A stretch of 64,000 nucleotides of DNA from Desulfosarcina sp. OttesenSCG-928-A07. Lineage in GTDB: Bacteria; Desulfobacterota; Desulfobacteria; Desulfobacterales; Desulfosarcinaceae. The DNA lies in NCBI GenBank assembly GCA_030267325.1, contig JAJDJS010000002.1, positions 62,001 to 126,000 of the forward strand, written 5' to 3'. Positions 44,214-48,612 of the stretch are shown here, one piece after another. Under the pieces are notes generated by a model. The model searched no databases and was not told the origin of the DNA. It saw nothing but the letters and a program-made list of their open reading frames with translations. The position numbers and the translations under genes were made by a program. Each line of letters opens with the position of its first letter. Position 1 is the first letter of the stretch.

Positions 44214-44729
44214 ATGAAGCCCAAAACAAAAGAAAACATTGAAAAAGCGTTTATCGGTGAAGCAAAAGCCTATTTCCGGCTTCTGGCATATGCGGAAAAA
44301 GCCGCGGAAGAAGATATCCCGCAGGTTGCCCTCTTGTTCAGAGCCATTGCCGAAGCCGAGCGGGTTCACGCGACCCGGCACCTCAACCTGGTCAAGGATA
44401 TTGTGGTCAAGGACACGGACACCAATCTTGAGGAATCCTTTCAGCGGGAAAAAACCGTCAGTGAAATCGCCTATCCGGAGTTTCTCAAAGTCGCCGAAGA
44501 TGAGGGCGAAAAAGCCGCCGCCATGGTCTTTTCCTTTGCCCGGGATGCGGAAGAATACCACGCCAAACTCTATGACCGGGCCATCATGAACATGATCAAC
44601 AATAAAGTAAAGGAATACCACGTCTGTCAGGTCTGCGGCTATGTGACAGACCTCAAAATTCCGGACAAATGTCCCATCTGCGGCGCACCGCCGGAAAAAT
44701 TCAAGACCGTTTCGGATCAGGACGAATAA
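44214..44729 (+). CDS. Rubrerythrin
   Basis: 171-aa cytoplasmic non-haem diiron peroxidase that reduces H2O2 to water in anaerobes. A ferritin-like four-helix domain has Glu-rich ligand motifs (IGEAKAYFRLLAYAEKA, IAEAERVHATRHL, ARDAEEYHAKLYD). The C-terminal rubredoxin-type site is CQVCGYVTDLKIPDKCPICG. RBS AGGAAAGG precedes the ATG. It overlaps the convergent rsmG-fusion gene by 13 bases at the 3' ends. It supports an anaerobic lifestyle for the host. Confidence 0.95.
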   Translation: MKPKTKENIEKAFIGEAKAYFRLLAYAEKAAEEDIPQVALLFRAIAEAERVHATRHLNLVKDIVVKDTDTNLEESFQREKTVSEIAYPEFLKVAEDEGEKAAAMVFSFARDAEEYHAKLYDRAIMNMINNKVKEYHVCQVCGYVTDLKIPDKCPICGAPPEKFKTVSDQDE

Positions 44730-46201
44730 AACGATGTGCCCCGCCGCCACTCATAAAGGGCGATTGCCGCAGCCACCGCCGCATTGAGGGATTCCACGGC
44801 ACCGGCCATGGGGATGGCCACGGCCCGGGTCTGAAGATGGGCCGGCACGCCAGGCCCTTCCATACCGGCCAAGAGACAGAAGCGGTCCGGAAATGAAAAT
44901 CCCGAAAGCGGCGATCCGGTGGCGGACAGGGTGACAAGGGGCAGGGTATCCGGCAGATCCTGAAGAGAGGGACCAGCAAAAAGCCGCGCCGTAAAAACAG
45001 TTCCGGCAGACGTACGAATGGCCTTGGGATGAAAAGGATTGGCACTTTCGGAAAGCAATACCACGCGGTCCACATCAAAGGCCGCAGCGCATCGAATCAC
45101 CGCGCCCACATTTTCCGGATCCTGGAACGGAATCAACAGGGTACAGCCGGAAAGGGCGGCGTCAGCTGCCTGCCAAACCGAAAGGGCCGGGACGTCAAAC
45201 AAAAGCAGGGGCGTTCGGGTGCCGAAAAGATCCAGCGCTTCGAACAGCTCCGGCGCCAGTTGCAGCCAAGTCATGTCCGGCGGCGCATCCGGTGGCGGCG
45301 GATGGTGTTCCCCACGAGTAATCCAGGCTGCACATCGGCCGGGATGCCGGGTGAGGGCGTCGGTCACCAGCCGGTTTCCGCAGATCAATGTTTTTTCCGC
45401 TTTTTTAACGCCGCGGCCGGTGAGGAGTTTTTTCAGATCCCGGAATATCGGATTGGTACTGCTTTCAATGAGCCGGGTTCGGCGCCAGGGAAAAGATGCC
45501 GCACCAGTCTGGCAAGACGGCGCGGACAGACGGCGATAACACACCAGCCGGCGCTGGTGCGGGGTTTGGGGAATGGCGTAGGCCATATCGGCGGAAAGAC
45601 TGTATTCACCTGAAAACCGGACTGCCGCATCTTCTATTTCCGCGTCACAATGGGGGCCTTTCATAAATACGGCGATCCCGCCCTGAACCAGACATCCGGA
45701 AATCCGGTCCAAGGTATCGGCAATGTTTTCCACAGCCCGGGTGATCACCCCGTTTACCGGTCGGTCAAAATCCGGTGCAATGCCTCGCCCGATAATTTCC
45801 ACATCGGACAGACCCAGGGCATCCACGGCTGTTCGGAGAAAGTCAACCCGGGCTTTCCGGCTTTCAGCCAACAGAAGGTGCAGTTCCGGCCGGAATATTT
45901 TAAGGGGAATACCGGGCATGCCTGGACCCGTGCCCAGATCCATCAGGGGCGAGGGAAGCTGGGTCTGAAGCGCCGGCAGCATGGAATCCGCGTAGAGTTT
46001 GTGCACCATATTATCAAAGTTGTGTATCCGGGTGAGATTCAACTCAGCATCATATTGCCGCAGCAGCTGGTGATACGTCCACAGGGCGGAAAGCTGGCCG
46101 GCGGAAAGATGAATTCCGCAGCGCCGGAGCAGCAAATTCATCCGATCTGGTCCGGGTGCGTCAGGGGATGCGGAAGCAGGCGGAAAGGGGTTGGCGTTCA
46201 C
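44717..46201 (-). CDS. rsmG: RsmG-SpoU fusion: 16S rRNA m7G527 methyltransferase plus TrmH-type 2'-O-methyltransferase
   Basis: 494-aa single ORF with two RNA methyltransferase domains. Residues about 20-225 are RsmG: LNLTRIHNFDNMVHKLYADS and the SAM motif LMDLGTGPGMPGIPLKI. Residues about 240-494 are a SpoU/TrmH SPOUT domain: IESSTNPIFRDLKKLL, then motifs PFQDPENVGAVIRCAAAFD, LLAGMEGPGVP and IPMAGAVESLNAAVAAAIAL, the trefoil-knot SAM site. RsmG alone is about 210 aa. The start is GTG at 46201 (or Met21). A MITE-like repeat ends 17 bases upstream. The fusion is unbroken in the sequence given. Confidence 0.88.
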   Translation of the reverse strand: MNANPFPPASASPDAPGPDRMNLLLRRCGIHLSAGQLSALWTYHQLLRQYDAELNLTRIHNFDNMVHKLYADSMLPALQTQLPSPLMDLGTGPGMPGIPLKIFRPELHLLLAESRKARVDFLRTAVDALGLSDVEIIGRGIAPDFDRPVNGVITRAVENIADTLDRISGCLVQGGIAVFMKGPHCDAEIEDAAVRFSGEYSLSADMAYAIPQTPHQRRLVCYRRLSAPSCQTGAASFPWRRTRLIESSTNPIFRDLKKLLTGRGVKKAEKTLICGNRLVTDALTRHPGRCAAWITRGEHHPPPPDAPPDMTWLQLAPELFEALDLFGTRTPLLLFDVPALSVWQAADAALSGCTLLIPFQDPENVGAVIRCAAAFDVDRVVLLSESANPFHPKAIRTSAGTVFTARLFAGPSLQDLPDTLPLVTLSATGSPLSGFSFPDRFCLLAGMEGPGVPAHLQTRAVAIPMAGAVESLNAAVAAAIALYEWRRGTSFYSS

Positions 46202-46639: not shown

Positions 46640-47782
46640 ATGAATGCGGCGAATATGCGTTATATCCATGAACAGCTCCACTGGCCCCACTTCCACTGGG
46701 ATATTGAAGCCCTTGCCGGTTTGCTGGGGACAGTGCGCTACAAGCAGGGCTTGCTGCTGGGCCGGATGGGTGCGCTGGGGTTTTCCATCCAGGCGGAAGC
46801 GGGCCTTGAAACCTTGACGGAAGAGGTGGTGAAATCCAGCGCCATTGAAGGGGAAAAGCTGGATTCCGCTCTGGTTCGTTCTTCTCTGGCCCGCCGTTTG
46901 GGAATGGACATCGGCGGTCTGGCGCCAGTCAACCGGCACATTGACGGCATTGTCGACATGATGCTGGACGCCACCCAGCAATATGCAGATCCATTGACAA
47001 AATCGCGTCTGGTGGGCTGGCATGCGGCGCTTTTTCCATCCGGGTTCAGCGGGTTTCGAAAGATCACAGTGGGGGCGTGGCGCACCCCTGATGACGGTGT
47101 CATGCAGGTGGTGTCAGGTTATGCCGGAAAAGAGAAAGTCCATTTTGAAGCCCCGGCTGCAGAGCGCTTGGACAAAGAAATGGCCGTTTTTACAGACTGG
47201 TTCAACGCACCTGCCGACATCGATCCTGTCCTGAAAGCCGGAATCGCCCACCTCTGGTTTGTGACCCTGCATCCTTTTGGAGACGGCAACGGACGCATCG
47301 CCCGGGCCATTGCCGATTGCGCCCTTTCCCGTGCGGATAACTCCCCCCACCGGTTTTACAGCATGTCCAGTCGTATTGAGCAAGAACGCAAGGCGTACTA
47401 CGACATCCTTGAACGCACACAAAAGGGCAGCCTGGATATCACGCGCTGGCTGGGGTGGTTCCTGGGGTGCCTGGAGCGGGCGATTGACAGCCCGGAACAA
47501 ACCCTTGCCGCTGTTTTTCGTAAAGCCCGTATCTGGCAGCAGGCAGCGCGCTATCCGCTCAATGCCCGCCAGCGCAGCATGATCAATCGATTGCTGGATG
47601 CGTTTGCGGGCAAGCTGACCAGCGGAAAGTATGCCAAGCTTGAAAAATGCTCTGCGGACACGGCCCTGCGGGATATTCGGGAACTGGTGCAATATGGGAT
47701 TTTCCGCCAGAGTGACAAGGGCGGACGCAGCACAAGCTATGAACTGGTGATTCCGGATGAAACGCAGACAGGCGGTGTGTGA
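46640..47782 (+). CDS. Fic family protein with DUF4172-type N-terminus
   Basis: 380-aa Fic enzyme. The N-terminal segment YIHEQLHWPHFHWDIEAL is DUF4172-like. An inhibitory motif SSAIEG (Ser66-Glu70-Gly71) and the catalytic HPFGDGNGRIARA (His211) are intact, so it is likely a self-inhibited AMP-transferase. A C-terminal winged helix (KLEKCSADTALRDIRELVQY) follows. Its stop overlaps the next start (TGATG). Located in an accessory patch with KilA-N, an unknown and HigBA genes. The target is unknown; Fic proteins can act as toxins or regulators. Confidence 0.88.
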   Translation: MNAANMRYIHEQLHWPHFHWDIEALAGLLGTVRYKQGLLLGRMGALGFSIQAEAGLETLTEEVVKSSAIEGEKLDSALVRSSLARRLGMDIGGLAPVNRHIDGIVDMMLDATQQYADPLTKSRLVGWHAALFPSGFSGFRKITVGAWRTPDDGVMQVVSGYAGKEKVHFEAPAAERLDKEMAVFTDWFNAPADIDPVLKAGIAHLWFVTLHPFGDGNGRIARAIADCALSRADNSPHRFYSMSSRIEQERKAYYDILERTQKGSLDITRWLGWFLGCLERAIDSPEQTLAAVFRKARIWQQAARYPLNARQRSMINRLLDAFAGKLTSGKYAKLEKCSADTALRDIRELVQYGIFRQSDKGGRSTSYELVIPDETQTGGV

Positions 47783-48612
47783 TGGCAAAACTCACGGTTC
47801 TGAACACAACGGTTTCCCTTTATTCCCACAAGGAAGAGGATTACATCAGCTTAACAGATATGGCGCGTTATCGTGACGCCAAGCGGGTGAACTATATTAT
47901 CCAGAACTGGCTGAGAAACCGAAACACCCTTGAGTTTGTCGGGCTTTGGGAGCAGTTGAACAACCCGGACTTTAAAGGCATCGAATTCGATGCCTTTAGA
48001 AAGCAGGCCGGACTGAACAGTTTTTCGCTCACGCCCAGGTTATGGATAGAGAAAACCGCTGCTGTGGGGCTTGTTTCCAAATCTGGGCGTTACGGCGGAA
48101 CCTATGCACACAAGGACATCGCCTTTGAGTTTGCGTCCTGGCTGAGTGTTGAATTCAAGCTTTACCTTATCAAGGAATTTCAACGCCTCAAGGACGAAGA
48201 ATATCGTCAGCTTGGCTGGGACATCAAACCCAACCTTGTCAAAATCAACTACCGTATTCACACCGATGCCATCAAGGCTCACCTTGTGCCGGGAGCGATC
48301 ACCCCGGCTCGGGCCAGCAGGGTGTATGCCATGGAGGCAGATGTTCTGAATGTGGCCCTGTTTGGTCAGACCGCCACTGAATGGCGTAAAGAAAATTCAG
48401 GCAAAAACGGAAATGTGCGGGATCATGCCACTGCCGCACAACTGGTGTGCCTTTCCAACCTGGAAAACCTCAACGCCCTGTTCATCAAGGAAGGCGTGCC
48501 GCAATCAGAGCGCCTCACCCGACTCAACGCCATTGCCATTCACCAGATGACGCTGCTCAGTTCCGATCCCGGCATAAAACAGCTTGAATCCGCAGAAGAA
48601 GTAAAAAAATGA
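47782..48612 (+). CDS. KilA-N domain protein
   Basis: 276-aa protein. The KilA-N domain at about 10-135 has EEDYISLTDMARYRDAKRVN, WLRNRNTLEFVGLWE, and GRYGGTYAHKDIAFEFASWL. The C-terminal half is helical (VRDHATAAQLVCLSNLENLN). KilA-N domains bind DNA and are found in phages and in bacterial accessory regions, often next to toxin-like genes. The start ATG overlaps the fic stop, and its own stop overlaps the next ATG (ATGA), so three genes are translationally chained. It may act as antitoxin or regulator for Fic, which is an inference. Confidence 0.85.
   Translation: MAKLTVLNTTVSLYSHKEEDYISLTDMARYRDAKRVNYIIQNWLRNRNTLEFVGLWEQLNNPDFKGIEFDAFRKQAGLNSFSLTPRLWIEKTAAVGLVSKSGRYGGTYAHKDIAFEFASWLSVEFKLYLIKEFQRLKDEEYRQLGWDIKPNLVKINYRIHTDAIKAHLVPGAITPARASRVYAMEADVLNVALFGQTATEWRKENSGKNGNVRDHATAAQLVCLSNLENLNALFIKEGVPQSERLTRLNAIAIHQMTLLSSDPGIKQLESAEEVKK

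What the first reader, a model, noticed from the sequence alone, without database searches (positions are those of the whole stretch)
44717..46201. RsmG fused to a SpoU/TrmH methyltransferase in one ORF
Two RNA methyltransferases with different folds (Rossmann and SPOUT) are joined without a stop. The pairing could couple m7G527 in 16S rRNA with a 2'-O-methylation made on the same particle. I do not recall a characterised fusion of this kind.
Basis: partly seen in the sequence, partly recalled or inferred. Interest (0 to 1): 0.6.

Follow-up and report, generated by a model that had tools for sequence, protein, structure and literature searches.

The report
RsmG–SpoU double rRNA methyltransferase fusion
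This gene joins two ribosomal-RNA methylating enzymes of unrelated folds into one protein that is conserved across several bacterial phyla; the first half looks like the enzyme that marks the small ribosomal subunit and the second most resembles enzymes that mark the large subunit, so one protein may modify both.

Summary
The fusion is real. The 494-aa ORF (44717-46201, minus strand) holds a complete RsmG/GidB domain, a short flexible linker, and a complete L30e-like plus SpoU domain. It is no assembly artefact: 70 distinct one-ORF relatives (34-66% identity) occur in Desulfobacterota, Planctomycetes, Myxococcales and Leptospirales/Spirochaetia, with both active sites almost invariant. The RsmG halves form one clade (bootstrap/SH-aLRT 100/99), so one fusion event is simplest; later splits followed, and two genomes carry the halves as separate genes at distant loci.

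In several lineages the fusion is the only RsmG found; in Desulfosarcina, including this genome, a separate RsmG coexists. Every sampled genome that kept only the SpoU half has a separate RsmG. This supports real RsmG activity in the first half.

The SpoU half is a distinct subfamily. Its nearest solved relative by sequence and fold is B. subtilis RlmP (Gm2553, 23S A-loop), followed by RlmR and AviRb, all 23S enzymes. So "two marks on the same particle" is not supported. One protein serving two ribosomal subunits is more likely, but the 2'-O target is unproven. I found no paper describing this fusion in the library searched. It is a new variant of a known kind: bifunctional rRNA methyltransferases.

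The parts
44717..46201 (-). RsmG-SpoU fusion ORF, 494 aa, GTG start (Met21 is an alternative start)
45521..46141 (-). RsmG/GidB Rossmann methyltransferase half, about residues 21-227 (Pfam core 37-195)
   Evidence: PF02527 99.8 bits; Foldseek to 3g8b, 1xdz, 1jsx
45488..45520 (-). Poorly conserved linker, about residues 228-238, pLDDT below 50 at 233-236
45161..45487 (-). L30e-like substrate-binding domain of the SpoU half, about residues 239-347
   Evidence: full-length alignment with 7qiu; AF2; PF22435 in 3 relatives
44741..45142 (-). SPOUT (SpoU) catalytic domain, about residues 354-487
   Evidence: PF00588 90.2 bits; motifs N364, R370, E448-G451, E470-S471-L472-N473

Best explanation
A bifunctional rRNA methyltransferase. 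Shown: one conserved polypeptide with two intact, independently folded SAM-dependent domains joined by a flexible linker, probably from one ancient fusion that later split several times. Inferred: the N-terminal half makes m7G527 in 16S rRNA, as RsmG does. Inferred, weaker: the C-terminal L30e-SPOUT half acts as a dimer and makes a ribose 2'-O-methyl in 23S rRNA, most likely in or near the A-loop (RlmP-like, Gm2553; I would give that exact site about 0.35). The fusion then mainly co-expresses or co-localises two ribosome-biogenesis enzymes rather than channelling one substrate. In the window's host a second, standalone RsmG is also present, so the RsmG half there is redundant or specialised.
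For: Both domains pass Pfam cut-offs in the window protein and match in all 61 aligned members. Invariant columns include the catalytic and SAM residues of both halves over proteins down to 34% identity. All fused RsmG halves plus two split orthologues form one clade, 100/99. The SpoU halves plus 9 standalone orthologues form one clade, SH-aLRT 100. The fusion is the only GidB in G042, G080 (both 99% complete), G116, G145, G291, in Planctomycetes G326-G328, in G329-G331 and in G336, whereas all eight sampled genomes that kept only the SpoU half retain a separate RsmG. Nearest solved structures: E. coli, T. thermophilus and B. subtilis RsmG for the N half; RlmP (7qiu), RlmR, 1ipa, AviRb for the C half, by phmmer, profile and Foldseek. 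PF22435 MRM3-like substrate domain in 3 members. AF2 mean pLDDT 91.4 but pTM 0.66, with pLDDT below 50 at 233-236. The own genome's other two SpoU proteins are TrmJ-like, so no separate RlmP-type enzyme was found.
Against: No activity data. The window protein scores 97.0 bits on TIGR00138, just under its 99.5 cut-off, although L028 (119.2) and the split L087 (112.2) pass. The SpoU subfamily sits on a long branch (1.25) away from RlmP/RlmR and has its own motif around the RNA-contacting loop (HPK then x-[VIL]-R-[AT] where RlmR has R-N-S-T), so another target is possible. An RlmE-type FtsJ is present in the host, which argues against Um2552 but not against Gm2553.
Confidence: 0.6

Rival explanations
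1. Same-particle model of the first reader: both halves act on the 30S precursor, m7G527 plus a nearby 2'-O-methyl in 16S rRNA.
For: Long conservation as one chain. The SpoU half is a subfamily of its own, so its target is unknown.
Against: The nearest characterised relatives of this L30e-SPOUT type act on 23S rRNA (PMC12123411). Halves are separated to distant loci in G302 and G487. SpoU-only lineages exist.
Confidence: 0.12
2. The SpoU half modifies tRNA or another 23S site (P-loop, AviRb site, or a new one), and the RsmG half keeps its 16S role.
For: L30e-SPOUT enzymes have moved between several 23S sites (PMC12123411); the motif III and loop residues differ from RlmR.
Against: Best sequence and fold match is RlmP, an A-loop enzyme.
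Confidence: 0.35
3. One half is a non-catalytic RNA-binding or assembly module that positions the other.
For: A duplicate RsmG exists in the window's genome, so one RsmG domain could be free to drift.
Against: Catalytic residues of both halves are invariant from 34 to 66% identity; mean divergence of the two halves is equal (0.49 and 0.51).
Confidence: 0.08
4. Sequencing or assembly error joining two genes.
For: None beyond draft quality of some relatives.
Against: One-ORF form in 70 distinct relatives from several phyla, including the complete chromosome of D. widdelii (L005).
Confidence: 0.01

Closest known systems
RsmG (GidB), 16S rRNA m7G527 methyltransferase (PF02527, TIGR00138; 1jsx, 3g88, 1xdz)
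   Same: Fold, SAM loop, conserved R and KG motifs, full domain length; the only RsmG found in several fusion hosts
   Different: Carries a second methyltransferase at the C-terminus; forms its own clade apart from standalone RsmG; the window member is 2.5 bits under the NCBIfam cut-off
RlmP/YsgA (23S Gm2553, 7QIU) and mitochondrial MRM3
   Same: L30e-like plus SPOUT architecture; best sequence, profile and fold match for the C half (E 6e-20, TM normalised to target 0.79); E before SLN in motif III as in RlmP
   Different: Separate subfamily on a long branch, fused to RsmG; target not shown
RlmR (23S Um2552, T. thermophilus, PMC12123411)
   Same: Same fold; equivalents of N122, R128, R153, S236, N238 kept
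   Different: D235 is E, N154 is T, T156 is A in the window protein; an RlmE-type FtsJ is already present in the host
RlmKL (E. coli 23S m7G2069 + m2G2445) and the TrmD-Tm1570-type tandem SPOUT fusions
   Same: Two RNA methyltransferase domains in one chain
   Different: Those join two Rossmann or two SPOUT domains; here a Rossmann domain is joined to a SPOUT domain, and the two probably serve different ribosomal subunits (PMC4119055, PMC1829167)
TlyA (23S and 16S 2'-O-methylcytidine, PMC12805891)
   Same: Precedent for one protein methylating both subunits
   Different: A single active site rather than two fused enzymes

Membership tests
RsmG | PF02527 above gathering score over the whole domain | tested here: met
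   99.8 bits against 27, profile positions 2-162 of 184
RsmG | TIGR00138 equivalog cut-off (99.5 bits) | tested here: inconclusive
   Window 97.0 bits, not met; fusion-family members L028 119.2 and split L087 112.2 pass
RsmG | SAM-binding and catalytic motifs retained | tested here: met
   D88 G90 G92 G94 R155 K181 G182 R217 invariant in 61 members
RsmG | Makes m7G at 16S G527 | not testable with these tools
   Indirect only: sole RsmG found in several hosts
SpoU/TrmH 2'-O-methyltransferase | PF00588 and motifs I-III | tested here: met
   90.2 bits; N364 R370 E448 G449 G451 S471 N473 invariant
RlmP/MRM3 | L30e-like substrate domain plus SPOUT | tested here: met
   Full-length alignment to 7qiu; PF22435 in 3 members
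RlmP/MRM3 | Groups specifically with RlmP in a tree | tested here: not met
   Own clade (SH-aLRT 100) on a long branch beside RlmP, RlmR and others; no specific sister relation to RlmP
RlmP/MRM3 | Makes Gm2553 in the 23S A-loop | not testable with these tools
   No rRNA modification data
RlmB | TIGR00186 cut-off 160.15 | tested here: not met
   68.8 bits
RlmR | D before SLN contacting U2552, and the R-N-S-T loop | tested here: not met
   E470 and R-T-S-A in the window protein

The most novel reading that the evidence does not exclude
A single protein lays one mark in each ribosomal subunit's A-site region (m7G527 near the 30S decoding site and a 2'-O-methyl in the 50S A-loop), giving the cell a stoichiometric or timing link between small- and large-subunit maturation, with an RluA-type pseudouridine synthase as a divergently encoded partner.
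Probability: 0.2. Interest if true: 0.7.

Novelty: new variant of a known kind. Interest (0 to 1): 0.42.

Why it matters
A Rossmann-SPOUT methyltransferase fusion appears undescribed in the literature searched here, yet it is conserved in several phyla. It gives a clean test of whether rRNA modification of the two subunits is coordinated, and it suggests a target (23S, A-loop region) for a SpoU subfamily of unknown substrate. It also affects annotation: a fused gene can be named for one half only, and hosts where it is the only RsmG could be misread as lacking one function.

Tried and rejected
(1) Assembly artefact: rejected by 70 distinct one-ORF relatives. (2) N-terminal extensions of up to about 290 aa in genus g2 relatives (L064-L072), first taken for a third domain, are antisense shadows of a divergent RluA-family gene. 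(3) RlmE versus SpoU complementarity: RlmE-type FtsJ (206-217 aa) is present in the window's genome, G014 and G302 and not seen in G080, the Planctomycetes, G331 or G336, so there is no clean complementarity and no target assignment. (4) RlmB identity: rejected by score. (5) RlmR-type Um2552: disfavoured by residues and by the presence of RlmE in the host. (6) Literature: no paper on an RsmG-SpoU fusion; the RlmP paper itself is not held. (8) My notebook groups L031, L032 and L034 with Planctomycetes; their record titles name only 'bacterium', so they are not counted as such here.

Full report
Observation. The ORF at 44717-46201 on the minus strand is open for 494 codons. Pfam gives GidB/RsmG at residues 37-195 and SpoU at 357-483, both far over their cut-offs. 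The stretch between them is not empty: residues 243-486 align end to end with the L30e-SPOUT protein 7qiu, B. subtilis RlmP/YsgA. AlphaFold2 on a 61-member alignment gives mean pLDDT 91.4 and pTM 0.66, with confidence below 50 only at 1-4 and 233-236, which I read as two rigid units on a flexible tether. Foldseek matches the C-terminal unit best to 7qiu (E 6e-20), then RlmR, 1ipa and AviRb, and the N-terminal unit to T. thermophilus, B. subtilis and E. coli RsmG.

Not an artefact. Forty-nine loci in the genome collection encode relatives, nearly all as one ORF, in Desulfobacterota, Isosphaeraceae and other Planctomycetes, Myxococcales, and Leptospirales/Spirochaetia. In the window's family 21 of 30 genomes, own included, hold the full one-ORF form. 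In an even draw of 297 genomes of the phylum 19 do, in 8 families. Among 70 distinct relatives the domain order never changes, and the columns that stay invariant in a 61-member alignment include D88, G90, G92, G94, R155, K181, G182 and R217 of RsmG and N364, R370, E448, G449, G451, S471 and N473 of SpoU. The stretch between L219 and S247 varies from 20 to 48 residues and holds the least conserved block outside the two ends.

History. All fused RsmG halves plus two split orthologues form one clade apart from standalone RsmG, including the standalone copies in the same genomes (bootstrap/SH-aLRT 100/99). The SpoU halves plus nine standalone SpoU orthologues also form one clade (SH-aLRT 100). 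One fusion followed by losses and splits is the simplest reading; the direction is inferred, because the root is not tested. Genuine splits: in G302 and G487 the RsmG half and the SpoU half are separate genes on different contigs, and the RsmG copies sit inside the fused clade, although an AU test of the fused rows as a clade of their own gives p 0.064. In members of families f46, f58, f43 and f44 only the SpoU half is kept. The D. cetonica split (L042/L103) is a frameshift within the conserved end of the RsmG half in a draft genome, not two natural genes.

Function of the RsmG half. In G042 and G080 (both 99% complete), G116, G145, G291, the three Planctomycetes tested (G326-G328), three unnamed bacteria (G329-G331) and one Spirochaetia genome (G336), the fusion is the only GidB match; several of these are MAGs, so absence of a second copy is not proven everywhere. 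All eight sampled genomes that kept only the SpoU half have a separate RsmG. This pattern suggests that the two are interchangeable and that the fused half does RsmG's job. In the window's genome a standalone RsmG exists at G000:C60, 29% identical over the domain, so the fused half there is redundant or specialised. In Myxococcales and Leptospirales the coexisting standalone GidB proteins are the diverged ones.

Function of the SpoU half. By sequence, profile, fold and the MRM3-like substrate domain hit in three members it belongs with the L30e-SPOUT 23S enzymes: RlmP (Gm2553), RlmR (Um2552), AviRb (Um2479) (Table 1 of PMC12123411). It is not a member of RlmB by score and lacks RlmR's D235, N154 and T156. 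It sits on its own long branch, so membership in RlmP is not claimed; RlmP-like action on the A-loop is the leading guess. The window genome holds only two other SpoU genes, both TrmJ-like, and an RlmE-type FtsJ. This leaves Gm2553 or another 23S site open and makes Um2552 unlikely.

What the fusion does. The evidence points to two different subunits, one enzyme each. The variable linker, the independent domains and the repeated loss or separation of halves argue against obligatory coupling; long conservation as one chain in several phyla argues that co-production is useful. TlyA is a precedent for one enzyme serving both subunits (PMC12805891, title and abstract), and RlmKL for two fused rRNA methyltransferases (PMC4119055). 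I found no description of a Rossmann-SPOUT fusion of this kind in the library; subscription papers and protein databases outside these tools were not searched.

Neighbourhood. In 66 of 96 loci (four of the 66 are repeat fetches) an RluA-family pseudouridine synthase lies just upstream on the opposite strand, including beside SpoU-only genes (L089, L090, L093, L095) and RsmG-only genes (L049, L087). It is absent from the window, where Fic and KilA-N genes follow instead; the host's copy is on another contig (C93), and in relative G014 it lies about 22 kb away. This may be a functional partner or only conserved gene order.

Noticed in passing
L004, L005, L008, L018, L023, L087, L089, L090, L098, L099 and others: An RluA-family pseudouridine synthase is divergently encoded directly upstream of the fusion in 66 of 96 loci, also beside split halves; its target is unknown (nearest characterised model TruC, far below cut-off).
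   Followed up: partly
window 46640-48612 (+): A Fic/DUF4172 gene and a KilA-N gene sit where relatives carry the RluA gene; the host's RluA orthologue is on another contig, so an insertion or rearrangement is likely.
   Followed up: partly
L088-L096: Standalone orthologues of the SpoU half (249-290 aa) form, with the fused ones, a subfamily of L30e-SPOUT enzymes without assigned target.
   Followed up: partly
L149-L153 (Leptospirales and Myxococcales genomes): Highly diverged standalone GidB proteins coexist with the fusion; they may have lost or changed RsmG function.
   Followed up: partly
draw from the phylum of G327 (Planctomycetes): 62 of 149 genomes showed no GidB match at all, so RsmG may be missing or too divergent in many Planctomycetes (completeness of these genomes not told).
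   Followed up: no
L051 (Myxococcales MAG; G491:C21:65535-66934): The two halves appear as adjacent ORFs in different frames with a short overlap near the linker; could be a frameshift error or a natural translationally coupled pair.
   Followed up: no
L064-L072 upstream of the fusion: Antisense frames of the divergent RluA gene stay open and run in frame into the fusion ORF, giving false 600-780 aa ORFs; a trap for automatic gene calling.
   Followed up: yes
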